The position numbers were made by a program, and so were the translations under genes. 64,000 bases of DNA from Albifimbria verrucaria (lineage: Eukaryota > Ascomycota > Sordariomycetes > Hypocreales > Stachybotryaceae), in assembly GCA_020081605.1 (NCBI GenBank), contig JAHREC010000018.1, forward strand, positions 682,001 to 746,000. The letters are read 5' to 3'. Numbering within the stretch: the stretch's first letter is position 1; each line of letters opens with the position of its first letter. Positions 13,006-52,629 of this stretch are shown here, piece by piece. The notes under the pieces are model-generated. The model saw only the letters and a program-made list of their open reading frames with translations, did no database searches and was not told where the DNA came from.

Positions 13006-13264
13006 TCATCTATAGGTGAAAACCATTGGCTTACTTCCCTCCTTCTTAATTCCCTTGGTGATGGCCTTGATCAGTTTAGGAAGCAACTTGATCAACGCGC
13101 CAAAGAACCGGCGTTCGATGTGGCCGGAGCCACGTGTAGCAATACCGGATTGCTCTTTAGTCAGCTCCTGTAGGGCTGCTTCCAGCTCAGGGACCTCCTC
13201 AGGTGACAGTCCTAAAAGCGCTGCTACCTCCTGAAGATCCTGGAGAGATTCCTCATCAGAATCA
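13006..13264 (-). repeat. Precursor module 2 (acidic segment, Arg-Arg, basic core)
   Basis: Second copy, with the shared SGHIERRFFG at about 13100-13130. Its core is unbroken and longer than that of module 1, with a short extra tail before the stop. Protein identity to module 1 is high at the cleavage site and lower in the acidic segment, which suggests an old duplication under selection. Confidence 0.6.
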
Positions 13265-13664
13265 CCAGAGCTGTGCGCGGCAAGACTTCTACCTCCCTTC
13301 TTTCCCTTCAAAATCTTCTTCAACGCCTTCATCATATTTTTAAAAGCTTTCCAAAGAAGCGGCGCTCGATGTGGCCAGAGCTGCGCGTGGCAATATCAGT
13401 CTCCTTTGTAGCTTCATCCTGAAAGATTGATTCCAGCGCAATTATTTCCTCAGATGATAATCCAAGGAAATCCTCAATCTCTTTGAGATCCTGGAGGTTC
13501 TCCTCGTCGTCCTGAGTTTCAGCCACTGGCACTGGCACCACAGGTGCAGCAATAGTAGGTGGTTGTGGGACACTGACATCGGTCCCACCCGATTTAGCTG
13601 GTGTCGGTACTGCAATGACGAGGCCGGCAATGGCAGCCAAGGTGAAGGTCTTGAACAGCATCAT
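13006..13664 (-). CDS. Secreted two-module precursor with acidic pro-segments and Lys-rich amphipathic cores (frame break)
   Basis: The start at 13664 gives a clear signal peptide (MMLFKTFTLAAIAGLVIAVP). A Pro/Val-rich spacer leads to two tandem modules. Each module has an acidic, helix-prone segment (EENLQDLKEIEDFLGLSSEE; EESLQDLQEVAALLGLSPEE), then IATR, then the same SGHIERRFFG, then a Lys-rich amphipathic core. The second core has regularly spaced Lys, one Pro hinge and about +7 net charge, ending at 13006. A one-base break in a run of A at about 13334 splits the frame inside core 1, so module 2 appears as a separate frame without a secretion signal. The matching module layout argues for one gene. 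Arg-Arg suits Kex2 cleavage. Acidic pro-segments that neutralise cationic membrane-active peptides are known from animal defence peptides; such a role here is inferred. No family was recognised. Confidence 0.7.
13277..13512 (-). repeat. Precursor module 1 (acidic segment, Arg-Arg, basic core)
   Basis: First copy of the tandem module. The shared SGHIERRFFG lies at about 13351-13380. The basic core that follows carries the frame break. Boundaries are approximate. Confidence 0.6.
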
Positions 13665-15256
13665 GATGAAAATGAGAGAGTGGTGATAGATGTGATGAGT
13701 CTTGGGAAGGGCTGTGAAGCGGTAGAAATTGGTGAGAAAACTGGAACAGATGAGATATCGTTGCAAGGCGTGGAAATACGTAGACACAAAGAAATAAGAG
13801 AGACAGAGAGAAAAGAGAAATAAAACGAAAAGGCAAGAGATGGAGCGTTGTGCGAATGCTGTTTGAGATGTTGATGAGAGAATAGAGCCATTTCATGTGG
13901 AATTCATGTGCTACTTATACTTGGGATAGTCGAAACAGTTGCTACTAGAAGTCTGCACGTCTTGCTGTCTTCCAACGCATTTGCTTGCCTCGTCAAAGGA
14001 CAAGCCTCCCTTCGCCTCTACCTTCTGCTCGAAGAGGCACAGGTTTGCCAATGCGAGTTACCCTTGGCGTCCAGAAATAAACAATGTTTGGGGTCCAATA
14101 CATCTTTTCGAAGAGTTCCTTGGAAATGTGAGGGTCTTTTCCTTGGATGTGCGAAGGCAGTGCAAGCGTTTAACTCCTCCTAGCCGCTCAACTAGAGCAT
14201 GGGGATGTTTTGAGTGTTCTACGATAAAGCGATTATAGCCTATACCACCACATAATGTAATGCAGGAACCTTGAAATAGAGTCATCTAGCGTCGTGGGGC
14301 TAAACAGTTCCCTATTCCGTGTAACTGAATTGGTCGAGACCCTTACCTGACCTTGATCCTGCACGGGCAGTTGGGACGTGCGGAGCTGGGTTACCATTTC
14401 CCTATATTGGGACAGGCTACCGATCCTTCTTTTCTACAAGGCTAAGACAACTGATTCAATTGGAAGTAAGTCCGGGGTTTCGTGTAACGTGGATCTCAGA
14501 GGCTATGTCATTTTCCTAATCAGTACTGCCGTTGCCTGGCCCTCACCTGCGCCGCATTCACACCAGTAGGCCAATATCAGGAGAATGCCGAGACTTTAAA
14601 TGTGGATTCTAGAAGGGGCTGTGAGAGGCAGTTGAGCAAATCCTTGTCACAATCTAGTTAGGCCGATGTTGGAGCGCGGCAATCGTTGGCTATTAATGGC
14701 TCAGAAACATCTACTTCTGTTGTTCACTGGTTGTGTTCCCAGAAGTTTGCCTTCTGGTGCTGTGTAGCCCCGTCCCATCGAAGTTTCAAGTATCACCAAA
14801 TCTGCCTGAGCTGGACTATCAGAATCCCAACCAAAGTTTGTGCGTCAGTTGCTGGATTATGACAATGATGAGGTCTGACTCTGCTATGTGAATGAGCCCT
14901 CTCTGGTCGTGAATTATCGGCCTCTTGTATAGCGTACTATCCCGTGTGTCATAGAATCTATAGTTTTGATGTTCGATTTATGATGCGTCCTGCGTACTTT
15001 GAGGCACACAGCCCCAGAGATATCACGTTCCTACAAAATCTTATTTATGTAATTACAACATAGTTGGTTAACGATTGAGCCTAAGAGAATATGAGAACAT
15101 ATCGACAATATGACTTGGCAAATCCTCGAACTTTCGAACATTTTCCTTCAAATAGCCGCTTGAATTGGAACCCAACATACGTCTTGGATAATCTCCACAA
15201 ATAAACAGGATATCACTTCGAATTAAAGTACAATTAAATCCAGAAAACAACATCTT
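13665..15256. other. Long intergenic region
   Basis: Holds the precursor gene's promoter at its left end. From about 13950 to 15250 only short random frames are seen, with no motif, RNA or repeat. Confidence 0.5.
13914..13919 (-). promoter_or_regulatory. TATA box of the secreted precursor gene
   Basis: TATAAG on the minus strand, 250 bases upstream of the ATG at 13664, followed by a strongly CT-rich leader (about 13790-13840). This supports a real, inducible gene. Confidence 0.45.
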
Positions 15257-19724: not shown

Positions 19725-22700
19725 ATGGAACACACAGAAACAACCGAAAAGGTTGCTGGCCATGAAGGAACGTCTCCTACAAGCCAAGAGCATCACAATG
19801 CTTCACAACCTGGACCGAAATCTGACGGGTCACCAGAAATCTCAGCATTTATGGCTTACAAGGTAAAACCTGCTCCTAATTTCCACCAAGTTTTGCTGTA
19901 GAAACTGACCAGCCGATCAAGAGAGTCTTCCGATATGGCTCAAACACCGATCGCTTCCTCCAAGGCGTTGCCTCCGCGATAGCTATTGCTTCTGGCGTCG
20001 GTATTTCAATGCAGACTCTCATTTTCGGCACTTTCATCACGACTATGAATAATTTTGCCGCGGGTAAATTGACTGCCACAAACTTTCGTAGGGATGCTGG
20101 GCAATTATCGTGAGTCAATGCCTTTCCCGTACCAGAGCCCCTCGAAGCTTCCACACATTAACATCTATGTAGGCTTTACTTCGTCTACCTTGGCATTGCC
20201 AGATTCATTCTATCATATTGTTATAACCTCTTGTTCACATATGCAGCACATCGTATCACCCGCAATATCCGTATCGAGTTCCTTCGCGCCGCTATTCGAC
20301 AAGAGGTTGCCTTTTACGACTTTGGTCACGCCGGATCTATAGCCACACAAGCCACTTCAAACGGTCGTTTGATCCAAGGAGGCATATCTGAGAAGCTCGG
20401 GCTCGTTCTACAGGGGTTAGCTGCCTTTTTGGCGGCGTTCATTGTCGCATTCATTGTTCAATGGAAGCTCACGCTGATCTGCCTCTGTATTGCACCTGCT
20501 GCCCTCATCGTACTTGGGATTGCCTCTGGCATGCAAGCTAGCTTGATGGTCCAAAGTATCGGTGTTTATATGCGAGCAAACTCACTTATTGAGGGTGTAC
20601 TTGGCGGTATTCGGGTTGTACACGCTTTTGAGATGAGGGACGCGCTCGTTGAAAAACTAAACAAGCACCTCAAGGAAGGTCAGAATATTGGCAAAAGCTG
20701 TCCCCCTCATAGGCATCATGTTCTCGTCCCAGTTCACTATTGTTCAGCTTGGATTCGGCCTTGCCTTTTGGCAAGGTATTCATATGCTTGCAATAGGAGA
20801 AATCGACGACTCTGGCAAGATTTTTACGTACGTTTCGTTCCTTACAGCATGCTTCAATCCCATTCCTCACTCAAAATTCGAATTAGGGTTCTGTTAGCAA
20901 TTATCCTTGCTTCTACCAACTTAACGTCACTTGCACCCCATTTTGTAGACTTCAGTCAAGCTGCGTCTGCTGCAGCAAAGCTGTTCAATGTCATCGACCG
21001 CATCTCAGACATTGATCCTTTTGAAGACTCGGGACTGATGCCATCCACTATCGACGGTGACATAGCACTGAATAAAGTCAGTTTTTCTTACCCTGCTCGT
21101 CCGAGCATGATCGTTCTCCACAACTTCTCCCTTGTAATCCCTTCTGGCAAAGTTACAGCTCTGGTAGTGAGTCCTCCGCTGAACCTGCATTCTGTCTACA
21201 ATGCTAATACAATTAGGGAGCATCTGGCTCCGGAAAGAGTACTATTGTGGGGTTATTAGAGAGATGGTATACCCCCAATGAAGGGCAAATTAAGCTTGAT
21301 AACCAGCCAATAGATCGGTATAACCTCCGGTGGCTTCGAACCTCATTAAGGCTTGTGCAACAGGTAAGTAAACTAGCTAGGGTCTAATACCTGCCTGAAT
21401 CTAACGTCAATACCAGGAACCTGTACTTTTCGAGGGTCTGTCTTCGAAAATATCAAGCAAGGTTTATGCGGCACGAGATGGGAGCAAGCTTCACCAGAGG
21501 AACAACTTGAAAGAGTCCAGAACGCAGCCAAGACTGCCTATGCACATGACTTCATAACTGATCTCCCAAACGGCTACGACACCGAGGTTGGACAACGTGG
21601 CGGCCATTTGTCTGGCGGTCAGAAGCAGCGCATCGCTATCGCCCGGAGCATCGTATCTGACCCTAAAATCCTTCTTCTTGACGAAGCCACAAGCGCACTT
21701 GACCCTCATGCCGAGGCTATTGTGCAAAAAGCCCTAGACAGAGCGTCTAAGGGGCGTACTACCATCGTAATTGCCCACAAGCTCACAACTATTCGCAACG
21801 CAGATAATATTGTGGTTTTAAATAAGGGCCAGATTGTGGAACAGGGTACCCATGAATCTCTGATTGCGAGTAATGGGACTTACACCCGTCTTGTCAAGGT
21901 ACAAGATCTTGCTTTAGATTCAACTCCTGAACTCTCATCTGCGATAGGCACTGATCACTATAGTGATCCTGACGGCAACAATGAGGTAGATGTTAAGCTT
22001 CGCAAATCATTAACGCAGGATATTTCGCCTGCTCAAACTCTGACAGATGCTGGCAAACAGTACAATTTCGAACTTCACCACCATCTCGGTGTCTTGAGGG
22101 TTATACCTAGGCTCATCACAGAAACAAAGGATATTATGTGGTCCTATGCATTTACTGTGCTTGGCATAGTGGGTGGAGGTGAGATTGCAGTTTTCCTGTC
22201 CTGGTTCTCAGGAAGAGACTCAAGCTAACTGTTATAGCTACTGTCTATCCTGCTCAGGCAATTCTTATATCGAAAGTGGTGGGTGTGTTCAACCTTCCTC
22301 AAACACAAATGATTGATCGTGGAGACTTCTTTTCTTCTATGTTCCTGGTCCTCGCCGCAGGCTGCCTGGTTTCTTATTTCACCCTCGGGTATTCAACAAA
22401 CAACATTGCGCAAGAGCTTAATCGCAAGTACCGCAAACAAATATTCAATGATATTCTTCGCCAAGACATGCAGTTTTTGACCGACCAGAGAACAATACAG
22501 GAGCCTTGACCAGCAAGGCGGACTCTTCTCCACAGTCTATTCTCGAGCTGATGGGCTTCAATATTGCCTTGATTGGTATTTCTATTCTCAATCTGTCGGC
22601 AAGCAGTATCCTCGCTCTAGTGTACAGCTGGAAGTTGGGTCTTTTAGTGATTTTAGCTGGTCTTCCGCCACTGATTGGAGTTGGCTTACTAAAGATCCGC

Positions 22701-24122
22701 TCTGATGCCAAGATTGACCGCGAAACCTCAAAGAGATATGCTAGCAGTGCTGCCATTGCCTCGGAAGCAGTGACTGCAATCCGCACTGTTTCATCTTTGG
22801 CAATTGAGGACAATGTACTGGCACGATATGAGAAGGAACTCAATCATGCTGTAACTGACTCAAAGTTTCCCTGTGCGTATTAATGATCTGGTTTGGTTTG
22901 ATGCAAGCATTGGAATATTGGTTCATGGCTCTAGGTTTCTGGTACGGTCAAAATAAACGCGGAGTAGTCTCAATGCTAACTCTTCGTGATAGGTACGGCT
23001 GCAGACTTCTCTCGTTTGGTGAAGTTGAGTTATCATCATTCCTTATCGCCTTTCTTGGCGTGTTCTTCGCAGGACAAGCATCGTCAATGCTATTCCAGTT
23101 TTCAACCAGTAAGCAATAACCAAGTATTTCAAGTCTCTTGGAAGAGAACAGAAGTCTAAATCACTTGCCAGGCATTACAAAAGGCCTGAATGCCGCCAAC
23201 TACATTTTCTGGCTTCATGGTCTCCAGCCTGCCATTCAAGCTACACCAGAACAACAGAACAAAGGCCCAACATCTGGTGACAAAATCGCGATAAATGATG
23301 TTTATTTTTCATATCCTTTGAGACCGGATACACCAGCTCTTAAGGGCGTATGTATGAAAGTAAGCCATCGTACTTGACTTTCGCTACAGATCGTGGTGAG
23401 TTGATATTAATGGGTTATTTCCAGGCCAAAAGGGGCAATTTGTTGCCCTCGTTGGCGCATCTGGCAGTGGAAAATCCACCATTATTGCCTTGCTCGAGCG
23501 CTTATACGATGTGTCTGCTGGCTCCATCACCATTGACGAATCAATTCTGACCGCCCTCACCCCTCGTCTGTATCGTCGTATTCTTTCTCTAGTTCCGCAA
23601 GAGCCGGTTCTTTTCGATGGTTCTATTAGGGAGAACATTACTCTCGGTATCGATAGTAGTACCACTGGCACCTCTTGTTTGCCTGGTGAACCTACTCCCA
23701 TCATTTCTGACACAGACATCGAAACATCTCTTCGTTCCGCCAATGCGTGGGATTTCGTTTCCTCCCTTCCTGAAGGTCTCAATACTCAAGTAGGGGCCAC
23801 AGGTTCTCAGTTTTCTGGCGGACAACGCCAACGTCTCGCTATCGCAAGAGCACTCATTCGAAACCCCAAGGTCTTGCTCTTGGACGAGGCTACCAGTGCT
23901 CTCGATACAGAGAGCGAGAAGGTCGTTCAGAGAGCTTTAGATGAAGCTTCTAGTAGTAGCGACAGAATCACATTTGCTGTTGCGCATCGTCTCAGCACAA
24001 TCAAGAACGCAGATGTCATCCACGTTTTCTATAGTGGTCGTATTGTAGAGACTGGAACACATTCCAGCCTACTTGCAAAGGGTGGCATTTACAAAAGGAT
24101 GTGTGAGTCTCAAGCACTGTAG
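19725..24122 (+). CDS. Full-length ABCB (MDR/Pmd1-type) multidrug exporter (introns and frame breaks)
   Basis: Plasma-membrane ATP-driven efflux pump with order TMD1-NBD1-TMD2-NBD2. It starts MEHTETTEKVAGHEGTSP. TMD1 shows LGIARFILSYCYN and LQGLAAFLAAFIVAFIVQWK. NBD1 has the Walker A GASGSGKST split by an intron, signature LSGGQKQR, Walker B ILLLDEATSALD and H-loop IVIAHKLTTI. TMD2 shows IALIGISILNLSASSILALV. NBD2 has GASGSGKST, FSGGQRQR, LLLDEATSALD and VAHRLSTI, ending at 24122. Several introns are visible (for example 20110-20171 and 22180-22237). Breaks occur near 20690, 21440, 22475 (T run before the DRPENN-type loop), 22870 and 23110. All ATPase motifs survive. Position beside a regulator, a P450 and a DUF829 gene suggests export of a metabolite or drug resistance. 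Confidence 0.9.
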
Positions 24123-29910: not shown

Positions 29911-31213
29911 CTAGTATTCCACAGCAGGCAAGATGACACCAGCACACTCGCCAAATCCAACATAGTTCCCTTCGCTTCCAGCGGCGCCGGTAATGATTAT
30001 ACCATCACCATCCTCCAGGAATGTCCTCTTCGCACCGTTTTGAAGTGTGAGAGGCTCCTTTCCATTCTTTGTTGCCTCCAAGAAGCTGCCTGTTGTACCT
30101 GCCTGAGTGCCAGAAATGGTGCCGCTGGCAAGCAAGTCACCAGTGTTCAGGTTGCAGCCCGTGACCGTGTGGTGAGTTATCAGCTGCGGAAACGAGAAGA
30201 GCAAGTCATTGGCATTTCCACGGCAAATAACCTCCTTGCTTTCGGAGCCGGCAGGCTGGATTTCGACTTGAAATTTGATATCGTAAGACGTGTCGTTGCG
30301 CTTCTCGCGCAGGTACGGTAAGACACTCTCCCGGCTCTGGGCATCGGCTACCTGGCTGGCACTTCGGAACGGCTCAAGGGCATCCATCAAAACAACCCAG
30401 GGGCTGACGGTGGTACCAAAGTTCTTGGAGGTGAATGGACCCAGAGGCACATACTCCCAAGCTTGAACATCACGGGCACTCCAATCGTTCATCAAAACCA
30501 GGCCAAAAGATGTTCCTCGGCATCGCCGATCCTAATGGGATCTCCCAGTTGGTTCGGCTTGCATACGAATGCGGCGAGCTCGAGCTCTATATCCAGCTTC
30601 CTGGAAGGGCTGAAGATGGGTATTTTGGGTGTGGCTGCCGGGTTTTCAAGAATTTGGCCATGCGGCCGTCTAATAGGAGTGCCAGAGACGACAACACTTG
30701 AGGCGCGACCGTGATAACCTACAGGCAAGTGCTTATAGTTCGGCTGGAGGGCATTGTCAGGGCCACGGAATAGAACTCCAACATTATAAGCGTGGTTCAA
30801 TCCAACGTAAAAGTCGGTATAGTCGCCAATCTGAAGAGGTAGATGGCACTGAACGGATGAAAGCGGGATCAGAGCCTTCTTGCGCAACTCCTCGTTGCCT
30901 TGTAGAACAGATGCATATTTGCCATCTTCTTGCAAAACTTGTTGAAGATACTGCCTGACATCGCGATGGACGCTGCGGCCCAGGGCGGCAAATGCATTTA
31001 AAGTAGAGGCATCGAAGACTGAGAGGTGAGATTCAATGGACGGGATGTCGTGAAATCCGCGGCTGTGTGCGAATTCTTTGAGATCGAGGGCAAACTCGCC
31101 AATGGCAATGGCTGGTCGAGGCGTCGGATCAGCTTCCGTGGAGATGATGCCAAATGGTATGTTGGCCAAAGAGAAGGGCGATTGAGGGGTATAGAGAGCC
31201 AGCTGCGAGCCAT
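29911..31213 (-). CDS. fahA: Fumarylacetoacetase (frame breaks)
   Basis: Hydrolyses fumarylacetoacetate to fumarate and acetoacetate, the last step of Tyr/Phe breakdown. The start at 31213 (MARSWLSIPLN) matches the family N-terminus and is followed, after a break near 31170, by NIPFGIISTEADPTPRPAIA. Catalytic region: DYTDFYVGLNHAYNVG contains the metal-ligand Asp and the general-base His. Then HLPVGYHGRASSVVVSGTPI, the metal-binding ELEL stretch (KLDIELELAAFV), MNDWSARDVQAWEYVPLGPF with Asp, and SKNFGTT with the Lys. A second break lies at about 30493. The length (about 433 residues) is normal and all key residues are present. It ends at 29911. Confidence 0.9.
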
Positions 31214-33903
31214 GATGGGCGGTTTCAATTACTGAGCTTCACTTATGAGAGTCTGCACTGTGATTTAGCGCTTAGAAGGGAGGTTATACGCCGCTATGCT
31301 TTGCGATTGCGACTGTGATGTTGGGTATGATGAACAAGAGATGTGGAGGGTAAAGGAAGAAATGCCCAAGAGTCTCAGACTGTCAGCACAATGATCCAGT
31401 AAACATGGTAGAAACCAAAAGAGAGAACAGAATGTCTCGGCACCATAATCATTGAGCCGAGCGAGCTTGAGCTTCATACTATCCAGCCATAGCCGGAGGT
31501 GCGGAATGAACCCCACACTCAATGCCGTGCCATGAGCCGCCTCTTTCCGCTCCACCCCGCCTTTGCCCAGCGAGGAGTCCCGAGCAGCCATTGGCGTTAC
31601 TCGAATTTAATGGATAATACAATGAGAATGAATGTGTAACCTTGTTTTTTCTTAAACCGCTTGGTTTCACATTACTTTGCTGGATTTTAATAAACAGTCT
31701 GTATAAAATCACATGGGCCTAATTGATCTACAATCCGCATACAAGGGGTGGCATACCTCATTTCTGAGAGCCAAGAGAGCGAATTCTGAAAAGGCAGTAC
31801 TTTAGTAACTTTGAAAGTTATGCTTGGTTTTCTTCCTAGAATTATGTTGAGCCGCCTTTGTAATCGTAAGGGAATTTGAGAAATACATTGTGACACCAAT
31901 GCCTTGGCAGTCTACAGTATCCCAGGCATGATCATGATACCCACACAGCTCTTCCGCTACATCTCGAAGACGCTTTCCTGAAATGATGAATTTTCCCATA
32001 ATCCTAGGCATGAACGAACGGTTCATTCGCCCAGCATCCATTTGGCAAACTACCCGCACCTTGGTGTTTGGTCTTTGCCCATACAGGCCAGAATGTAGAG
32101 TCAGTTGCAGCAGTAATGTCTCGTTGTCAAATCCATGTAGATGTTTCCCACAAGTTACTTTCGTTCTTCTGCGCAAGATCACCTAGCACTGTAGTAAACT
32201 GGCCTAAACCGACAATGACCCAATGAATATCTTGCTTCTCGGAACTGTCCTGTGATAGCACAGTCCTGAAACGATTCATAGTGCTAACATTTTAGTTAAA
32301 GATGGTATCCATTTGTAATTAAGACTAGATGCTTTCTAATTGGTTGTGGCGAGCCGACAGATGAGCAAAGGGGATAGGAATGAGATCCAGACAGGTAGAG
32401 AAGCCTCTCTTTCCATATCCTCCCTAGTCCGGGTTATGATAGGCAATTCTTGTTCTGAATAATATTTATATTATTAATGGATTGCAGGAAGACAAGTTCG
32501 CAGAATTAAATAGTGAACAATTATTTTATGTCGTTCAAATACTCTTTTAGCCCTCTACAATTGCCATTTAATGTGGAGGATAAGATTAAGAATCTCCTAT
32601 TCAGTCCAGTTAAGACTGTTTCAGGCCAAAGCGATGAGAGCTCATTTACACAAAGAGAAAGGAACCCCTTCAATAACGGATTTGCGGTGGGATTTTCTAT
32701 ATTCTCCCCTTACAAAACTCATTTGGCACGGCAAGTTTAACGCGTTTTAGGAGCAGCTGAGGCCACGTTCATGAAACTTGGATTTGCCTTCACAATATAG
32801 CTGCCGAATGCCTAGACCGAGGTCTCAAACTCCTTTGTTTGGTGAAGATAAGCTTGTAGCCATGCCTTCTACCGTCCTAGAGCGGTAGTTGGTTGAAACT
32901 GCTTGTCTGTGTCGAGCTCTGGTATTCTGCATTAAATGAGGCGTCCGAGTACGCAAGCTGGAAGGCGTTTCAGATACCAATAAGATATATAATAGTAAAC
33001 AACTCAGATCTCGCAAGATAAGTTGCGAACTATCTCGAGCGCACGGTTTGGTGCATCTTCGCAACAGCTTCAAGTTCTGTCAAGGGCAGATGTTGGCCAA
33101 CAAAACATTGTGGTTTTCTTGGATTTCCTGACAGTGTATCACGGCTTTAACCGACTCCATAGTAAATGCGCCCATTCAGGAACTTCTTAATAGGATTATG
33201 GGTAGTGATGTTACGCGTTGTGCCAACTTTTGCTCTTCGTGATCAGGAAGCCTCGACGTTCCTAACAGCGACCCGCTTGGGCGAGTTAGCCAACGCTAAC
33301 AGCAGAATCATATGAGCTCAAGACATCATTTCATGCTATCCATTTCTTTACTTGTTAATGCATAGTTCGTGTTCTTAAACTACTCCAATCTAAGGCTTGG
33401 TTTTAGTGCCATGTTTTAATTGTTTGTAACACAAGTGAGTCAAGACGGTGGATATGTTTCCATGAGCCTTCGGAGACAATTGGAACTACGTTCCACGCGA
33501 ACTATAGGTAACAGCTTGCGTCAGCTAGAATTATTAAACAATTGGGCTGACTTTGGGCCGTCTTGGCAGCGGGGTTGATGCAGTGTCGTGATGTGACTCG
33601 GCAGCCAATCTTACGGTGGGTCACGGTGTTGAGTAATCGAACAGGATGGTGAGAATGTTGATCCGATGCTAATCGGTCGACAGACATATGCAGAAAACAT
33701 TACAAATGCCAAAAATGTAAGGTGGGAATGAGGCACAGCATGAGGCCTATATAAGAGAGTCGGCGGTTGGCATGGAGTTAAGCCAAGCGCCTTCGCAGTT
33801 TAGATTCCTTCTCACAACATACATAGACTACTATTTAAAAGGAACATAGCCACCTTACTTACACTTATACACCAAGTCGGTGATAAACCAACAACCACGC
33901 AAC
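31214..33903. other. Long AT-rich region without a firm gene
   Basis: About 2.7 kb with scattered short frames. One minus-strand frame at 31802-32182 is open for about 125 codons, holds four Cys and the stretch MGKFIISGKRLRDVAEELCG, and has no start ATG. A spaced ATG near 32280 begins MNRFRTVLSQDSSEKQD in another frame. It could be a small unrecognised or decayed gene. The rest shows no transposon motif that I can name. Confidence 0.4.
33748..33755 (+). promoter_or_regulatory. TATA box of the RidA gene
   Basis: TATATAAG, 149 bases upstream of the ATG at 33904. Confidence 0.5.
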
Positions 33904-41474: not shown

Positions 41475-41561
41475 GGCCGCGTGGCCTAATGGCTAAGGCG
41501 TCAGATTTCGGTTCGAGCTACCATTCTCTGAAGATTCCAGGTTCGACTCCTGGCGTGGTCG
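41475..41561 (+). tRNA. tRNA-Arg (anticodon UCG) with 14-base intron
   Basis: The acceptor stem GGCCGCG (41475-41481) pairs with CGTGGTC (41554-41560), with discriminator G. The D-arm is GGCCTAATGGCTAAGGC-like. The anticodon stem TCAGA/TCTGA encloses loop TT-TCG-G and a 14-base intron at 41512-41525, placed one base 3' of the anticodon as is standard. The T-arm is CCAGG-TTCGACT-CCTGG. Anticodon TCG (41508-41510) reads CGA Arg codons. Confidence 0.93.
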
Positions 41562-41956: not shown

Positions 41957-43535
41957 CTATACAACCAGCTGAACCTCTAAAATTCCCATGACTCTTGCTT
42001 GGTACACATTTACAATCTAGAAGGAGTTAGCTCATTTACTTTGGATCAAGACAAGGTGGAAAAATAACAAGCCCGGAAAAGGTGGCACGATAGAGGTGTA
42101 GAACTTGCATACCTTGAATCTTTCGTCGGCCTTCTTCAACAACGCTGACCACTGCGCCAAACTTCGCTCCTTGGCAGCGAGACTGTTCATCATGATGATA
42201 TCGAGGTGTCGCATATTGTGCTCCAGCACCTTCGGCCTTGTGTTTGCTGCTGGAAGCACCATGTCATTGATCAACAAAGATGTACCCGGTGCAGACTTTT
42301 CCAAGGTGGGAACCAACGACTTCAAGATCTTAGCGCCTAGCTCGTCGTTATGGTTGTGGAAAATCTGTCGTAGGAAGAATATGCTTGCATCAGTCACAGG
42401 CTGTGGCTGGAAGAAGTCATATTGCATGAATGAAACTCGATCCTCGACTGGCTTGAAGTCTGGGTGCAGAGCTCCTTGTGACAGCATGCCAGGATCAATG
42501 TCTTGAACAACAAACTTCAGATTGGGGAAATGCTATGAAGTCTTATGTTAGGTCGAATTCTCCCAAAACGGGGCATTACTTACCGTTGCAAGTATAATTG
42601 AGATATGGCCACTTCCTCCTCCCACATCGACAATGGTCTTCTTCCCCAAAGATGACCAAGGGAAGAGATCCCGAACATCAGCGATATCGCGATTCACTAC
42701 CACTGTCAGCTTGGTTGCGAGTATTTTTCTCCAATGAAGCTCTTACTGCGACCATAGCCTGCCATAGCTAATGCGAAACGAGCACCGCGCTCCTTGTTTT
42801 CCTTGTAATATTGGTATGGTGGTGCGCCAAGGCGAAGAGCGAAAGGGGTGTTTGTAATATCACACTTATATGGGTCGTTCTCAACCGATGTGGCTGCAAG
42901 TGAAGATGCTTCAAAGAATTCGTCCGTCCTATCGTCACGATTAGCACAAACCAAAACCCGTCCATAATGATGATGAAATCGTACTGGAAAGCTATGGTAG
43001 CCTCAATATCTTTGTTTTGGGCGATGAAAGCAGACAGAGCAGTATGCTCGAAGACGCCTTCTTCCACCTCGTTGAAGCAGCGTTGAGTGGCTAACAGTTT
43101 CATAACGCGCTCAAGACGATCCTCATCCATCTTGGCAGCAGAGGCAATGTCCCTGATAGACATGGGCTTGTCAAGAGGAATTATAGAAAAGAATTTGAAA
43201 CGAAGAGCAATTTGCCACGCTGCAAAGTCATGGTGAGAGCACATGAATGTGCGAAGCCATTGCAAGGGCCCTTCAGCGAGCAGGATCAGATCCTGTGCGG
43301 ATTGTGTGAGGTCAATGCGAATAGCATCGAACTCATGGTCAATAGGGTGCTCCGGAGAGGCTGATGTGAAGTCAGGCTCAGGGATACCATTCCGCTCAAA
43401 GTATTCAACCAAGCGTTCAGCTTGCTTGAGTGCCTCGCGGGCCTTTTGTAGAATTAGGGACTAGAGACGTGTTAATTATTAATCTCAAAATATATGAGAG
43501 AGTAAACATCCAACCTTGCGAGGTGTAGCAGTCAT
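41957..43535 (-). CDS. SAM-dependent O-methyltransferase of the polyketide cluster
   Basis: Class I plant-type O-methyltransferase fold. The start at 43535 (MTATPRK) is followed by an intron, SLILQKAREALKQAERLVEY, the winged-helix dimerisation domain (AWQIALRFKFFSIIPLDKPM, IRDIASAAKMDEDRLERVMK), and introns after IAFQ and AGYGR. The SAM site is TIVDVGGGSGHISIILA, then KFVVQDIDPGML, then FFLRQIFHNHND where the catalytic His is expected. Its C-terminal exon (IVNVYQARVMGILEVQLVV) lies at about 42014-41957 behind a GTATGC donor. No frame breaks. Lying next to the PKS, same strand, it probably methylates a phenol of the polyketide. Confidence 0.88.
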
Positions 43536-44337
43536 TATGTGCACTTGAAATTGACAGCTGATAATCTGGTACGGTGTTGATAATGTTAAGAAGTAATCAT
43601 ATACAAGCACGCGTTGAAGGGGTGAGGGCGAGATATTTATATGCAAGAAAGACAGAAGCTATAGCAGCCATCTGTCGAGAAGAGTAAGGGGTAAATAAAT
43701 AAGCAGTTAGTAACATACTCATGTCTGACACCAGGCTATCATCCTTGCTGAATACTACATTATCACACTGACACTCCAACGCCTCATTCCTTCTCATGTA
43801 TTTCAAGCATTAGTCTGCATGGGGTTTTTCTGTTCTAGGAAGGAGCTTATGGTATTCCGTCAACTAGTAGAGCGAAATTTACGGATCAAATCTTACGAAT
43901 TACGCATATTCAACATATATATGCACACTGAACTTCAACGTTGGCGTGGTCCATATACCGGCATGAAAACAGCAGCAACGAGGACGATAAGGGAGGGCCT
44001 CCAGTCGAATAGAGACTTTTCTTGGTGGAATTAGAGAGGATGTAACCCCTATTTGCTAGATATCTGTCTTATGTTTACACTTCTGTTTGCGTGTATCTAG
44101 CTTTATTACGTCAAAGGCATGTTACTCGCCATGATAAAACAGAAAGCAAAAGAAAGCCAAAAGGCAGGCTAATCTATGCCTACGCATCGTTTGACGGTTT
44201 GTGGCCTCGTACTGGGCCCTTAATGAAGTCAAACGAGTTACTGTAACCCTCCTATGAAATGAACTCCTAGAAATACCAACTAAATCAGATCCGTACAAAA
44301 TTATGCCTGCCGAGTTAGCAAATTACAAACTGAAATC
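43536..44337. other. Gap between O-methyltransferase start and PKS stop
   Basis: Holds the methyltransferase promoter. No TCGG-N3-CCGA copy was found here, unlike other cluster promoters. No other gene. Confidence 0.5.
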
Positions 44338-47300
44338 CTACAAGATTCCTTTATCCTTCCATATCCTTATGTAATTCCTGATCAACACGTTCTCTACTGG
44401 CTTTGCTTGCCTAAGTGTTGGTGAATCTTGCACTGCTTTGTCTGTTCCCAATACTAGGCCACCACAGGCCATGCGCTGAAAGTCTTTCTCTAGGAAGGTA
44501 ATGACCTTCTTTGCAGGATTATTCGTATCATGAACTGAAGAAAAGAAGCGAACACGATCAAGCCATTCATTGAAAGGTATGATGCTGGACGACGGGATTC
44601 CGAGCTCGTCCGCCAGAATTGAGACGGCTTCAGGCCAAGATTGTCGAACCGGATTCTCAACGTGATAGATGTTTGAACTTGGCGAGACACACAAAGCCAA
44701 ATCGGCTAGAGTGGCAGCCACATCGTTGGCCGGTAACCATGACAGGTGGCCCTGGAGGTTGGGAAATGCTTTCAAGGTATGGGCCGATTTGATCATTAGT
44801 GAGAAGTGCTCAACTGGATTCCAGTATCCACTTGTCTTTGATCCTGAAATCTGACCTACTCGAACACTCATCCCGTTAAATCGTTCTGGGTAACGATTCA
44901 GTGTCTCATTGACCAGTCTTTCGCAAACCAGCTTGGCATCACTATATCCAGATGGAAGTGCGTACTTGGCGTTCGAGACATCCTCGGCCACAATAATGTT
45001 TTGTGTAAGGACTGGGTACATCCCAACTGTAGCAATGGATGAGATGAATTGGAATCCAACTTTGACTCCTGAGGGAAGTGTATGTGCGACATCTCGACTG
45101 AGGTCAATCAAGTTCCTCATTGCAATAAATTGCTTTTCAAACTCAAAAATGGAGCGTGTAATACTCATAGGCCAAGCACAGTGCACGATATGTGTCACAG
45201 TGCTTGCCAGACTTTGATATGCCTTTTGGTCAAGCCCAAGTAATGGCTTTGAAGTATCAGAAGCAATAACTGAAGTTTTGCAAAAGCATTGTCGTCAAGG
45301 CAGATGCCCTTCTCAATCAAAGCTTGACGCATACGCGCCATTGGTTCCATCCCGCTGCTGGGTCGATTGAAGCATACCACTGTTCCAACGGAGGGAAGTC
45401 TGGCAAAATGCTCAACAAGATGCGCTCCTAAACTGCCAGTCGCCCCAGTGACAAGAACGACATGCCGAGTCAATGATGGTGAGAATGAACGATCTGTGGA
45501 ATTGGGTTCCGAGGAAGTCATAGAAAATTCGCTAGAATATTTAGCAACATATAGGTCAATCGCCGCTTGTCGAGCTGAGGTAGCGGACTTCAGCACAGGT
45601 GACATCGTACCTGAAGGTGGTGTTTCGGATAAGATATCTGACTCTCCAGCTGAATTTAGGGGCGAAGAAGTTGTCAAAGATGAAGCCCTTTCCATCTCAA
45701 TTGACTGTTCAACTAAATCATCTTTTGTTGATTCAGTTTTTATGTCAACTTCACCAATTGCAGTACGAATCCATTTAAACAAATCTTTGACGTCGGTCAA
45801 CTGCAACATCGAAGCCATGTCCAAGGTGCATTTGAAGATCGACTCTAGTTCGCGGCTTAACTCCATGCCCATCAGAGAGTCAATTCCAAGGTCGGCGAGA
45901 TTAGTGTCGTCGGTTACTTTGTCTGGGTCCACGCCAACCATTTCGGAGATGACAGCAACAACTTTTGATGCGACACCCGGCCCAGACTGAGGTTTGCTCT
46001 GGATCACGACAGATTCCACTGTCCTAAGTTGCCCTGGTTCGACAGTAGACATGTTAGATTCTGTTTTTGGGATGTTTGAAGTCTCCACTGTTAAATGAGG
46101 CTGTCGAGCTCCAGGTGTAAGACGGGTGAGCAGTTTGGACATGGCAACTTTTGACACGCGCTGATATTGAATACCGAGAATGACACCAAGAAGTTGTGAC
46201 GTCTTGCTATCAAAGACGAAGACATCACTTGAGAAGGACTTTTCCGTTGGCTTGTGATGTAGAGCAAAAACATCAAACACTTCAGGCTTCTGCTCAAATG
46301 ACTTGATAAAAGGAGATCGAACAATTCGCTGAACTCCACTTGAAATGAAGGCATCGCTGTCCGGTCTCTGCGTCATGCAGTTTACGTAGATGCCCGCGAC
46401 TTGACAGAAGGAATCGCACAAAGGAGCGTCCTAATTTTTACCAGTCAGCATATCCGTCGAGCGAGCCTACCAATTTGAGGCGAGGAACAAGACCAATTGG
46501 GGTACATAGAAATAAAGCGAATCCACAAGTCACTTACCAGCCATGTCTCATCCGAGTACTTTTTCACTACTCGACCAGCTGATGTGCTGCCCTTGGCACT
46601 GCCGACAACCTTTCGAACACCACGGAAGACTTCAGAATAGTCTACCACGTCGGAAAACAGCTTATATATGAAGCTGCCTTGAAGTATGTCATCACCCTCT
46701 TGGCCTTCAAGGACTTCACAACAGCGTTGGTGCGTGACAAGACGGGCGAATCTGTTATACTCATCCATGAACTCGGCATCGTCACGACGATGGAAGATTA
46801 CCTTTCCAGTTGCATGGAGGCTTTCTCCTATACCAGGCGTCCCGCCAAGGGGTTACTGACTATCTTCCACGACCACTTCCGTCTTGAGTCATCGATAATT
46901 GCCACATCAAGCCATACCACTCGTGAATCATCTTGGCAGATGGGAGTCTGATTCTCAAGGTTGCGGAGGTCAAGTTGGAAGTCAGACATCTGAAAATCAG
47001 GGCACAAACTGCGAATAGCTTCTGTTGCAATTTCAAGTTGGATTGTACTGGAACAGAGTGGTTGAGAATTCGCTACTTTGTGACCAGTTAACAGTTCCTG
47101 GAATTTCTCATGGGTCGTCTCAACACGGAATCTTGCTGTCTTTTTGTTGGTGTCTTTATATTCCATGAACGTCCAAAGACCAAGCGGCTTATCATTCAAG
47201 GATGCATCGTTTGAAGCATTATCGCCAGGCTTTTGGACTTTGAGCTCAATGAAGTTGCTGACTTTCTCGAACTGGTATGGGGAAGGATTAATGGGGTGTA

Positions 47301-50300
47301 TTGTGGCGCTTGTGAGGGATGATGAGGCCAAAAATCCACCTTTAGACCCTGTCTCCAGAGTGCTATGGTATCGTCTGTGAGACGTTGCCAAGCACCGTCA
47401 CTTGTGAGGTTTATAGCTTGAAAGTGTGATAATTGTGGTCTTCCCAAAGCTTTCGCGGCCATTTTCGTGACAGTTGATTGAGATCCAGCTTCTATCCAGA
47501 CTGCATCCTTGTACTTGTCAGCCAGCCGTGTAACAGCATCATTGAAGTATACTGGCTCTCGAAGGTGCTCAGCAATGTATGAGGAGGATAATGGCACGGT
47601 ATTTTTAATCTTGGTAGCCCTTTCGACAGGGATATGTGGGGAAGAGAAAGCAATGTCGTGCGTGATCTGCTCTAGGCTAGCAGCAAGACCTTCAACTAAG
47701 GACGAGTGGAAAGCATGAGACGTGTTGAGCCGTTTATATCGTATAGAGGCTTTGAAACTGTCTTCATCTCGCAAGAAACTCTCCACACGATTGATAGACT
47801 CTGTAGACCCAGCCAACGTAAAACTTGTCGGGCCGTTGTAACAAGCAATGCTAGCTGGATACTTGCAAACCGACTCGTCTTGATTCGCACGGGCTAAAAG
47901 GTCCTCAACAAGCTGTAAATCACCCTCTACTGCCATCATTGACCCTTTGTCCGAGCCCCATGAGTCTCTGACCAAGTAGGCTCGACGAGCGACAACTTTC
48001 AGCCCATCAGTGAGTGTCATGGCACCAGCCACCGTTTGAGCAACTAGTTCACCAAAACTGTGTCCAATAACAGCCACAACTTGCAGTCCGCAGTCTATCC
48101 AACTTTTCGCACACGAGTATTGCATAGAAAAGAGTGCTGTCTGAAGTTGAACGGTGTCTTCAATTGGTTCTCGCTCGAAAATATCTGGATATATGCCAGG
48201 CAAACCCATGGATTTGCAAATGATATTACACTGGTCCAAATGTTTTCTCAGGATCGCGGTGTGTTCAAAAACATGCCGATCCAACCCTACAAAGGTCGAC
48301 ACTTGACCGCCAAAACATAGTATGACTGGTCGAGATGGCTTGTTGACTTCGTTTGCTGCCAGTTCATTCCGCTGGAAAGATTGTAAAGTTTCTTTGAAAG
48401 CCTCAATGGTGCTGGCTTGGAATATCAATGCACGGCCGAGGGATCGATTTGACTGAAGCGTGTTGCTGAATGCAATATTGGGCAAGGAGATAGAATCCGT
48501 GGAGGAGGCGAGCAGGGATAACAGTTTGGAAATGTACCTGTGGAGAGATTGGTCGTCTGTTCCGCTGACCCAGAACGGTTGGGACAGATCAGGTATTACA
48601 TCTCTCACTCCTGCATTTCTTTTGGTGGTGCTTCGGTGACGACCATTGAAGCGTTAGAACCTGATGCTCCATAATTGTTGATCAAAGCGGCTTTAAATGG
48701 GGCATTCCATGGAATAGAATGTGTCGAAATTTCGATCTTGTCCGATGAAGAGGCATGAAGTGCAGGATTTATTGTGGAATGACTGGCTTGCGGTGTGATG
48801 ATGCCCTTCTGGATCTGAAGCAATGTCTTTATCAAAGCCACAATTCCGGAAGCGCACTCAGCATGACCAACCAAACCTTTAACGGACCTCAAGGCAAGTG
48901 TGCGAGAGCGCTTCTGCCCACCAAGTGCCTGCCGTATGCCGCCATACTCAGCTGGGTCACCAACTGCCGTACCAGTGCCATGTGCTTCAACAAATGTAAT
49001 GGCATCAGGATCGAGCTTGGCGCGTTGGATTACTTCTTCGAAGAGATTGGATAAAGAAGGAGAGTTGGGCACGGTAATCGCCGTACAGTTCTGATTCTGG
49101 TGCACAGCAGTTGCTGCAATAGTCCCGAGAATTTGATCACCATCAGCAATAGCAGTAGAAAGGCGCTTCAGAAAGACAGCTCCGACGGCCTCACTACGAC
49201 AGTAACCGTCTCCTTTCGCGTCAAAAGGCTTGCACTGTCCGGTGGGACTGAGAAATGAAGCTCCTGCAAGATTCTGGAACCACAAGGGGCTTGTCACTAT
49301 AGCAGATGCTGTTAGCCTTTGAAACCCAGGAGTGTCTTAGGAGTAGCAACAAGACCAGAAGAAGTGAGAAATTTGAGAGTTATAAAAAGTTATACATACT
49401 GGCATTGACACCTCCAGCAAGTGCAGCGGTGCATTCGCCACTGAGCACAGCTTTACAAGCTTCATGAATCGCAACGGAAGAACCGGAACATGCAGTGTCG
49501 ATACTCATAGCAGGACCAGTCCAGCCAAAGAAGTGGCCGATTTTACCAGCAACGAAACTCATTAGAGAACCGGTGGCAGTGAATGCAGTTACAGCATGGC
49601 ACGCAGCATTGTCTTGGTAATCCACGTTGCTGACGCCAATGTAGCAGCCGATGTGTTTGTCAACGCTCCTGGATGACTGAAAATACCCCGATTGCTGCAC
49701 AGCCTGGTAAGCAGCTTGGAGGATCATTTTTGCTGTGGATCCATGGCTGAGGCTTCTCGCGGGCTCTTGTTGAAGAATTTGTGATCGAAAGAATGAATAT
49801 CTTCCACGAAATTGCCAAACCATTTTCTATTGGGATCGAGACTCCTCCATGGAGTTTCGAAGCTGAAACGATCACCAGGAATTTCAACATGCTGTGATTT
49901 GTTCTCACACAGCAGGCTCCAAAATCCTCAAGGTCGTTGGCGCCAGGAACCCTACATGACATACCAATCACTGCAATTCTGTCATGGTTTGGATCCTGTA
50001 GCTTGGTGGCTCTTGGCTTAAGCTTCATTTTACCAGCATCTATATCGGCCATGTGGATAAGTCTCTGGCCTATGCCACGGGTGAATGACTGCGGCACACA
50101 TCGTTCAAGGCCGAATGAGACCATTGATTGCTGGTCTTCGGTTAAGCCCAAACGTATCGATGCAAAGGTTTGGTGCCAATGGCAGTGATCAACCAATATT
50201 GCTTTGATTCCAATTTCGTGCAAGCTTCCACTTGCGATGTAGCTACCATTCTGTGATCGTGTAGGAAGAATCAAGTGTCTTGCATCTGGAAGCGAAAAAC

Positions 50301-51172
50301 TTTTACGCGAGTTGCAAAAGTCGACAAGATCCTGAATGCTTGTCTTCCGTTGAGGGTCATGGAAGCGCCCTTGGAGATTTAGTTCTGTAGCTGAGACTCC
50401 AATTTCTTTGAGCTTCTGTAGCAAAATCTTATTGAGATCTTTGGGTGCTGTCACAGTACTCCGATTGTCGTCATAGGTAACGGAGATGTAGGCCTATGGA
50501 ATATTTGTAAATAATGGAATGAAAAAGATTCAAGTGGAATTTGCATACCTCAGGGTATGCTTTCAATGTCTGAAGCATTTCATGTTTAATTCGGCGTGAC
50601 GGCCAAGCCGCAGAAAACGAGGTGAACTCGCGACCTTGATTCTGCATATCCACGACCGCTCCAATGAGTAGCGCCACTCGGATAGCAATAGCCCCATGAT
50701 GCTCCAGTTGTTCACGAGTCGCTGAACATGAGACTGCCAGAGCACTGAGGAGACCAGTGCAAAAGCCTGCTGCTTCTGCGGTGGCATTTGAGAGTAGCAC
50801 ATTATGTGCTTCATTGGCCAACAGACAATAACGCAAGTATTGAGTTAAATGTAAGATAATAACGAAGGGGCAAAGAAGGCGATTAGGCAGCGGAAACGAT
50901 ATGTTGGAAGCATCTCCAGTTCGAAGACACTCGGCCAGGTACTGGAGTTCTTGGTTGGTTTCTAGGTGTGCCAGTGAAGGAAACGACTGCTGAATGTTCT
51001 CCCAATGACCAGGTAGCTCGGCTAGAATTTGCAGGACCCACTCCAGCAAGCCCGGCAGTTCATGACACTGCGTCCTCAATTCGGCGAGAGATGCAGCAGT
51101 GAAAGAAAGGAGTTGTGGACCAAAGAGGTAGACTGTGGGCACTGATTCTGGTTTGGGCGTTGTGGACGCCAT
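44338..51172 (-). CDS. Non-reducing polyketide synthase, SAT-KS-AT-PT-ACP-R (frame breaks)
   Basis: Iterative type I synthase of about 2,190 residues making an aromatic polyketide released by reduction. SAT from 51172 (MASTTPKPESVPTVYLFGPQ, with active Cys in AGFCTGLLSA). KS from about 49985 (DRIAVIGMSCRVPG; Cys in DTACSGSSVA; His in EAHGTGT and GHAEC). AT with GHSFGEL near 48055. PT begins about 47230, with His in LLTGHKVANS and Asp in FSDVVDYSEVF. ACP Ser in LGIDSLMGMEL near 45880. A Ser-rich linker leads to the reductase, with VLVTGATGSLGAHLV, ISSIATVG and YSDAKLVCERL. It ends at 44338. Introns near 50495, 49350 and 46480. Breaks near 49935, 48607, 47300, 46850 and 45250. Catalytic residues all present. 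No C-methyltransferase domain fits between ACP and R. Confidence 0.93.
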
Positions 51173-51492
51173 GTGAGCTGTGGTGCATTGAAGCTACCAG
51201 ACACATTTGTTCTACTGCAGATTTTCCTGCATGAAAGACATGTACAAAGCAGCCGTGATGGGCATTATAGCTTATGACTGCCAGTTTGCCGTGCCTAGCA
51301 CGGAGCAGTGTTCGGAACATGAAGAAGTGGAGACTTGTGAAGTGAATACTACCTTCCAAGCTTTACACCATATCCACAGCGTGTGGAGAATGCTTGAGGA
51401 ATAAGAACTTTGGTTACTGACATATCAAATCCCATCTGGCAAGGAAGTTGTTACTGTACCTGCATATGATCCTGAAGAACGACAAGCTTGGC

Positions 51493-51503
51493 TCGGGCGC
51501 CGA
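51493..51503. promoter_or_regulatory. TCGG-GCG-CCGA palindrome
   Basis: Perfect inverted CGG half-sites with 3-base centre, the kind bound by Zn2Cys6 dimers. It also fits the TCG-N5-CGA frame known for AflR. 57 bases from a second copy. Confidence 0.6.
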
Positions 51504-51549
51504 AAATCTGCCCCATCAAAAACACACGTGCCTCACAAGACGGGCAAGC

Positions 51550-51560
51550 TCGGACTCCGA
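51550..51560. promoter_or_regulatory. TCGG-ACT-CCGA palindrome
   Basis: Second perfect copy in the PKS/SDR promoter. It fits the AflR consensus TCGSWNNSCGR at every position. Confidence 0.65.
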
Positions 51561-51651
51561 AGTGGGACATGTTTAGTTAAGTAACTTATCATGAGACTCT
51601 GAATTACAAACCAGACGTACCACAATTTGAATTACATGCTTTCAGGTCGTC

Positions 51652-52629
51652 ATGAGTTTCTTCTACTCGCAGCTCTTTGTCACGCCAGCGTACCCGACCC
51701 ACTCCTTCAAGGGTCTCACGGTTATTGTAACCGGGTCTAATGTTGGCTTAGGATTTGAGGCAGCTCGTCACTTTGCTCGTTTGGGAGCCAGCAAAATCAT
51801 TCTCGCAGTGCGTAATGTACAGGCTGGAGAGGCAGCAAAAACAGCTATCGAAACTTCGACAAAGAGGCCGGGATGCTGTGAAGTATGGGAGCTAGACCTT
51901 GCCTCGTTTGACTCAGTCAAGGCCTTTGGGCAGCGTGTTTCCCAGCTCTCTCGACTCGATATTGTGGTTGAGAATGCAGGTGTTGCCAATCCCGAGACAT
52001 TTATCACAGTCGAGGGCCACGAGCGACACATTACTATCAATGTCATCAGCACCCTGCTACTAGCCTTGTTGCTTATCCCTAAGCTGGAGGCATCAGGCAA
52101 AGCTTTCCCAGATAGCTCACCGCACCTTACAATTGTCACCAGCGAGTTGCACGCCACGACAGAGTTCCCTGAGCGGAAAGCTGAGGATATTTTTGCAGCT
52201 TTGAATAACAAGCAAACTACCAAAATGGCTGAGAGATATGCCACCTCTAAACTGCTCGAAATACTAGTAGTGCGTGAGATCTCTCCGTCTCTGGAAAGCA
52301 CAGGTGTTATTGTCAATCTTGTGAACCCTGGCCTCTGCCATTCTGCATTGGCGCGGGACTATGGCTGGGGATTTTGGCTGTTCAAACTTGTTCTGGCGCG
52401 TTCTACGGAAGTCGGCAGCAGGACCCTGCTCGCAGGCGCTTCAGCCGATGCCAGCAGCCACGGCATGTATATTTCCGATGGTCTTGTCGCTCCAGGCGAT
52501 TTGTCGGCATTTGTAAAGAGTGAGGATGGCGCAGCTACACAAGCAAGGGTCTGGAAACAACTAAGAAGAATATTGGAAGAAATTGATCCCGGCTGTACTG
52601 GTATTATAGCAAAGAGTGATTTTGCGTAG
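51652..52629 (+). CDS. Short-chain dehydrogenase/reductase of the polyketide cluster
   Basis: A 325-residue NAD(P)-dependent oxidoreductase, single exon and unbroken. Cofactor motif TGSNVGLGFEAARHFARLGA near residue 27, NADP-friendly ILAVRN, structural NAGVAN, and catalytic YATSK (Tyr and Lys) with the upstream Ser in IVTSELHATTE. The region after it (VIVNLVNPGLCHSALARDYG) is typical of the retinol-dehydrogenase-like SDRs common in fungal clusters. Divergent from the PKS across a promoter with two palindromes, so co-expression is likely. It may reduce the aldehyde or a ketone of the PKS product. Confidence 0.9.
   Translation: MSFFYSQLFVTPAYPTHSFKGLTVIVTGSNVGLGFEAARHFARLGASKIILAVRNVQAGEAAKTAIETSTKRPGCCEVWELDLASFDSVKAFGQRVSQLSRLDIVVENAGVANPETFITVEGHERHITINVISTLLLALLLIPKLEASGKAFPDSSPHLTIVTSELHATTEFPERKAEDIFAALNNKQTTKMAERYATSKLLEILVVREISPSLESTGVIVNLVNPGLCHSALARDYGWGFWLFKLVLARSTEVGSRTLLAGASADASSHGMYISDGLVAPGDLSAFVKSEDGAATQARVWKQLRRILEEIDPGCTGIIAKSDFA

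What the first reader, a model, noticed from the sequence alone, without database searches (positions are those of the whole stretch)
13006..13664. Possible new kind of fungal secreted peptide precursor: tandem acidic-pro/basic-core modules with Arg-Arg sites
Seen: a signal peptide, then two modules each made of an acidic helix-prone segment, the identical SGHIERRFFG, and a Lys-rich amphipathic core opening with FFG. Established: Kex2 cuts after dibasic sites; fungal Kex2-processed repeat proteins (such as dikaritin RiPP precursors) carry short neutral cores; animal antimicrobial peptide precursors pair acidic pro-segments with cationic cores. Inference: this combines the two designs and may release linear membrane-active peptides. 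I know of no described fungal family like it. The frame break inside core 1 lies in a run of A and is probably an assembly error.
Basis: partly seen in the sequence, partly recalled or inferred. Interest (0 to 1): 0.88.

Follow-up and report, generated by a model that had tools for sequence, protein, structure and literature searches.

The report
Fungal gene for secreted helical peptides
A mould gene appears to encode a secreted precursor with two copies of an acidic segment followed by a positively charged, membrane-seeking helix, an arrangement better known from animal antimicrobial peptides; the gene looks real, but no fungal relatives could be searched and its product is unproven.

Summary
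From an ATG at 13664: a signal-peptide-like start, a Pro-rich spacer, then two modules, each an acidic segment, the identical SGHIERRFFG and a Lys-rich core. The modules match at 31 of 54 residues; synonymous change between them far exceeds amino-acid change (dS 1.75, dN 0.29; Fisher p 1.3e-6), so both were kept as protein under selection. Core 2 is a strong cationic amphipathic helix (moment 0.67; 0 of 20,000 shuffles reach it). The frame break in core 1 is most likely a sequence error: this assembly has similar breaks in HSP70 genes (6 in 4 of 5 genes), its own Kex2 and fumarylacetoacetase in this window. Best explanation: a Kex2-activated precursor of linear membrane-active peptides, the acidic segments masking the cores. 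No homologue search was possible, so novelty stays open. The host is probably in the Hypocreales (ITS judged from recall).

The parts
13006..13664 (-). Two-module secreted peptide precursor gene, ATG at 13664, stop 13008-13006, frame broken at about 13330-13350
   Evidence: dN/dS and shuffles, Fisher test
13611..13664 (-). Signal-peptide-like start (18 aa, hydrophobic stretch LAAIAGLVIAV, V-I-A before the likely cut)
   Evidence: Kyte-Doolittle mean 2.9 over 11 aa; no dedicated predictor
13512..13610 (-). Pro-rich spacer, VPTP...VAETQ
13401..13511 (-). Acidic segment 1, 37 aa, net -12
13350..13379 (-). SGHIERRFFG copy 1, Arg-Arg site 1
13335..13358 (-). Core 1, first part (FFGKLLKI) before the frame break
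13297..13350 (-). Core 1, second part in the other frame, 18 aa, net +8, moment 0.63 (83 of 20,000 shuffles reach it)
13153..13263 (-). Acidic segment 2, 37 aa, net -11
13099..13128 (-). SGHIERRFFG copy 2, Arg-Arg site 2
13042..13107 (-). Core 2 up to KK, 22 aa, net +6, moment 0.67 (0 of 20,000 shuffles reach it)
13009..13041 (-). C-terminal tail after KK (EGSKPMVFTYR)
13665..13860 (-). Pyrimidine-rich leader (74% C+T)
13915..13919 (-). TATAA, about 255 bases before the ATG

Best explanation
A working gene for a secreted precursor of linear, unmodified, cationic helical peptides. The signal peptide sends it into the secretory pathway; in the late Golgi Kex2 cuts after IERR, exposing peptides that begin FFG; the acidic segments offset the charge of the cores until then and fall away; Kex1 may trim basic residues. 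Released core 2 folds as an amphipathic helix on membranes and disrupts them, most plausibly those of competing microbes. Shown: the open pieces, the repeat, selection between modules, the charge pattern, amphipathicity, presence of a Kex2 gene, no UstYa match nearby. Inferred: expression, cutting, masking by the acidic segments, membrane activity and its target.
For: Module identity 31 of 54 aa, with 25.5 of 37.7 synonymous against 29.5 of 124.3 non-synonymous sites changed; in IATR..FFG 7 against 1; Fisher p 1.3e-6 on rounded counts. Read in the two other frames the same stretch has 22 and 18 of 53 identities and 1 to 5 stops per copy. Core 2 moment 0.67, 0 of 20,000 shuffles; second part of core 1 0.63, 83 of 20,000. 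Net charge -12 and -11 in the acidic parts, +6 (core 2 to KK) and +8 (core 1 second part, 18 aa). No Cys in either piece. Kexin-like protease encoded. TATAA and pyrimidine-rich leader. Nearest of 35 UstYa matches on the contig about 430 kb away.
Against: No transcript or peptide evidence. Core 1 ends without RR or KR, so RR-only cutting would leave core 1 joined to acidic segment 2 and free only core 2. Core 2 has a proline in its middle. The model of the second piece is of low confidence (mean pLDDT 46, pTM 0.27), though it draws a helix over residues 71-98. The acidic segments are not themselves clearly amphipathic (shuffle fractions 0.048 to 0.37 over the six stretches tried). The frame break stands in the held sequence.
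Confidence: 0.55

Rival explanations
1. Same processing, but the peptides serve the fungus's own surface or development, as the Rep1 peptides of Ustilago do, or act as signals.
For: Rep1 peptides are Kex2-released, linear and form amyloid-like fibrils (passage in PMC9769878); a role in aerial hyphal growth is stated in a reference title.
Against: The cores are strongly cationic and there are only two; signalling cores are usually short and neutral (recalled).
Confidence: 0.2
2. The peptides act on a host or animal cell membrane, as candidalysin does, rather than on microbes.
For: Candidalysins are amphipathic helices flanked by kexin sites (passages in PMC8787473). The genome has a trichodiene synthase-like gene and an ITS that from recall resembles Stachybotryaceae, a family with some plant pathogens (abstract openings in the listing).
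Against: No evidence on the target; no sequence relationship was tested.
Confidence: 0.1
3. A dying gene: the frame break is a real mutation and only the first piece (110 aa) is made.
For: The held sequence has TGATGA at 13334-13329.
Against: Breaks of one or two bases without room for an intron occur in 6 of 13 neighbouring HSP70 match pairs, in Kex2 (kexin residue 86 then 87, pieces overlapping by one base) and in fumarylacetoacetase. The module-to-module constraint covers module 2, which lies after the break.
Confidence: 0.1
4. An intron spans the break, so the true protein lacks part of module 1 or of core 1.
For: 158 GT/GC..AG pairs keep the frame. One listed donor is GTNNGT-like (GTCAGT at 13577). 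Three listed pairs, all with a GC donor at 13347, keep module 1 up to FFGK and remove the second part of core 1.
Against: No GT lies on the minus strand between 13401 and 13329, so a canonical intron would remove acidic segment 1 in part or whole, which carries protein-level constraint. The GC donor reads GCTTTT, not the usual GCAAGT (recalled), and would remove an amphipathic stretch that only 83 of 20,000 shuffles equal. The output was cut, so not all 158 pairs were read.
Confidence: 0.05

Closest known systems
Candidalysins (Ece1 of Candida)
   Same: Secreted precursor, dibasic cutting, linear amphipathic helical peptide (PMC8787473 passages).
   Different: Ece1 yields eight Kex2 fragments (PMC7329392 passage), here two modules; here the cores are strongly Lys-rich and each follows an acidic segment. 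No homology was tested.
KEX2-processed repeat proteins (KEPs), including dikaritin precursors
   Same: Signal-peptide-like start, repeats, dibasic sites.
   Different: Two repeats where both surveys ask for at least three; dikaritins depend on UstYa enzymes (DUF3328, abstract), with no match near here.
Rep1 repellent peptides of Ustilago maydis
   Same: Linear Kex2-released peptides (passage), called amphipathic in a reference title.
   Different: Amyloid-like fibrils; charge pattern and repeat number differ (recalled).
Animal linear antimicrobial peptide precursors
   Same: Signal peptide, acidic pro-segment, dibasic site, cationic helix (recalled).
   Different: Different kingdom; here tandem modules in one fungal precursor; no sequence relation tested.

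Membership tests
KEX2-processed repeat protein (published criteria) | Signal peptide | tested here: inconclusive
   Hydrophobic start with V-I-A before the likely cut; no SignalP available
KEX2-processed repeat protein (published criteria) | At least three repeats between dibasic sites | tested here: not met
   Two modules; criteria read
Dikaritin RiPP precursor | UstYa (DUF3328) gene nearby | tested here: not met
   35 UstYa matches in the genome, nearest on this contig ends at C15:262156, gene at C15:695006
Dikaritin RiPP precursor | Short Tyr-containing repeats (8-14 aa in the examples of PMC7329392) | tested here: not met
   Core 2 has 22 aa up to KK; the only Tyr or Trp of the two pieces lies in the C-terminal tail
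Candidalysin/Ece1 | Sequence relationship to Ece1 | not tested
   No fungal protein search was possible; toxin letters were not used as a yardstick
Candidalysin/Ece1 | Amphipathic helical peptide flanked by dibasic sites | tested here: inconclusive
   Amphipathicity strong; RR before each core; after the cores only KK
Candidalysin/Ece1 | Cytolysis | not testable with these tools
   needs the bench
Cysteine-stabilised fungal defensins and AFP-like proteins | Conserved cysteines | tested here: not met
   No Cys in either piece; best Pfam E-value 0.13, unrelated

The most novel reading that the evidence does not exclude
The first filamentous-fungal family of gene-encoded linear cationic helical peptides built like animal antimicrobial precursors, in which a whole acidic-pro plus core unit was duplicated inside one protein, with the recognition stretch SGHIERRFFG held fixed while the two helices diverged; and in which RR-only cutting may free one helix and keep the other masked.
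Probability: 0.35. Interest if true: 0.72.

Novelty: new variant of a known kind. Interest (0 to 1): 0.5.

Why it matters
Known fungal ribosomal antimicrobial proteins are mostly disulfide-rich (recalled). A Kex2-activated, charge-masked helix precursor in a mould would suggest that fungi reached the animal design independently, and that two-repeat precursors, which the published three-repeat filters leave out, hide more peptides. Genes broken by sequence errors, as here, are also easily missed by annotation.

Tried and rejected
Scans of bacterial/archaeal genomes and of viral contigs with the second piece only: 189 and 60 pattern stretches, none confirmed; fungi are not in these sets, so this says little. 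Pfam with both pieces (best E 0.13) and PDB sequences with the second piece (best E 0.0073, a chain named CAP REPEAT): no relative. Own-genome hits L006 and L007 (E 0.39, 0.75) and pattern hits L011 and L016 judged unrelated by eye. Intron explanation: unlikely, see rivals. AlphaFold with a two-row alignment: too poor to use; no fold search was run and the second structure job was not used. Sigma-70 promoter and intrinsic-terminator scan: nothing, and not applicable to a fungus. Paper searches: the motif letters (0 papers); candidalysin with Kex2, Fusarium and filamentous fungi (5 papers); Kex2-processed repeat proteins (14 papers); candidalysin-like (5 papers, none on filamentous fungi by title); cationic/helical or acidic-propeptide Kex2 peptides (0, 0 and 1 papers); cytolytic/ribosomal (21 papers, 20 listed). 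In these listings, and in the passages and sections I read, I saw no matching family; supplementary tables could not be opened. The label printed by the script used a poor cutoff and marks 8 pairs as frameshifts; judged by excess length, 6 are frame breaks (-2 to +1 bases) and 7 fit introns (56 to 95). Rows left out of that count: 4 of the 22. One search was a script that failed in part and was redone.

Full report
What is there. The gene lies on the minus strand, 13664 to 13006. Piece 1 (110 aa, 13664-13335) has a signal-peptide-like start, a Pro-rich spacer, an acidic segment and SGHIERR followed by FFGKLLKI, then stops. Another frame, open from 13395 to 13009, carries the rest of core 1, a second acidic segment, SGHIERR again and core 2 (FFGALIKLLPKLIKAITKGIKK) with a short tail. 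The dibasic sites of the two pieces are two RR and three KK.

Is it more than chance. The modules align without gaps over 54 aa with 31 identities; the highest of 2,000 shuffles scored 59 against 168. Piece 2 finds module 1 at E 6.3e-15 and piece 1 finds module 2 at 3.4e-14 in the 48.4 Mb genome; beyond the pieces themselves the only other listed matches have E 0.39 and 0.75. Between modules dS is 1.75 and dN 0.29; in the 15 codons IATR..FFG there are 7 synonymous and 1 non-synonymous differences. A Fisher test on rounded counts gives p 1.3e-6; codon positions 1, 2 and 3 differ 19, 10 and 26 times (chi-square p 0.03), and in the two other frames identity is 22 and 18 of 53 with stops in both copies. 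This is protein-level selection since an old duplication, and it covers modules on both sides of the frame break. As a control against over-reading, the GHIERR-like DNA pattern on its own is no rarer than its reversed control (3 against 5 places); the ERRFFG-like pattern is (3 against 0).

The frame break. It lies in a T/A run at about 13335-13350. I tested whether this assembly has such breaks elsewhere. In HSP70 genes, 13 neighbouring match pairs were examined, using 18 of 22 rows: 7 have 56 to 95 excess bases, as introns do; 6 have an excess of -2 to +1 bases with a frame change, in 4 of 5 genes. The Kex2 gene's two pieces align to kexin residues up to 86 and from 87 (1ot5) and overlap by one base. 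Fumarylacetoacetase in this window aligns up to residue 228 in one frame and from 227 in the next (1hyo), with the codons one base out of step, at a T run. In the polyketide synthase the reductase-like domain passes from profile position 83 to 92 across 23 bases where 24 would be in frame, and the frame also changes near 48608 (judged by eye). Such breaks in conserved genes make a sequence error the likeliest reading here. An intron is less likely: no GT lies between 13401 and 13329 on the minus strand, and the listed frame-keeping pairs that spare module 1 up to FFGK use a GC donor at 13347 and delete the second part of core 1.

Biophysics. Core 2 has net +6 and moment 0.67 against a shuffle mean of 0.22; 0 of 20,000 shuffles are as high. 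The second part of core 1 has net +8 over 18 aa and moment 0.63 (83 of 20,000). Taken to the C-terminus, tail included, core 2 has moment 0.45 (0.3% of shuffles). Acidic segments are net -12 and -11 and not clearly amphipathic. There is no Cys. A structure model of piece 2 has mean pLDDT 46 and is not used as evidence.

Machinery and setting. A kexin is encoded. Of 35 UstYa matches in the genome the nearest on this contig is about 430 kb away, so cyclisation of the dikaritin type is unlikely. Upstream are TATAA and a 74% pyrimidine leader, as is common for expressed fungal genes (recalled). The ITS looks to me like Hypocreales, perhaps Stachybotryaceae; this is recalled, not searched. A trichodiene synthase-like gene is present.

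How it may work. Kex2 cuts after IERR, with an aliphatic residue at P4, which Kex2 accepts well (recalled), and releases peptides that start FFG. Core 2 then ends at the C-terminus or, after KK cutting and trimming, near GI. Core 1 is less clear: with RR-only cutting it stays joined to acidic segment 2 and could be released masked. One free helix and one masked helix is thus a testable variant.

What is known. Both published surveys of Kex2-repeat proteins require at least three repeats (method sections read), so this gene would fall outside their filters. Candidalysins (passages read) and Rep1 (passage read) show that Kex2-released linear peptides that form helices or fibrils exist in fungi. 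None of what I read describes acidic-pro/cationic-core modules in a mould: of PMC6339444 I read the abstract, sections 10 and 24 and passages; of PMC7329392 the abstract, sections 9 and 13 and passages; of PMC9769878 and PMC8787473 passages; of the rest listings only. No homologue search could be made. I therefore rate it a new variant of a known kind, with a moderate score.

Noticed in passing
window 29914-31238 (-): Fumarylacetoacetase gene broken by a single-base frame change at a T run, no room for an intron; probably a sequence error.
   Followed up: yes
window 42032-52629: Polyketide synthase region: SAT, KS, AT, ACP and reductase-like end, with O-methyltransferase pieces and a short-chain dehydrogenase nearby; two likely frame breaks.
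   Followed up: partly
window 20231-24122 (+): ABC exporter pieces, about 6.6 kb from the peptide gene; a link is only a guess.
   Followed up: no
own genome C15:257619-262156: Three UstYa matches within 5 kb, a possible dikaritin-type cluster.
   Followed up: no
own genome C4:677912-679033: Trichodiene synthase-like gene, its matches split across frames.
   Followed up: no
window 41475-41561 (+): tRNA-Arg (TCG), 87 to 89 bases, perhaps with an intron.
   Followed up: no
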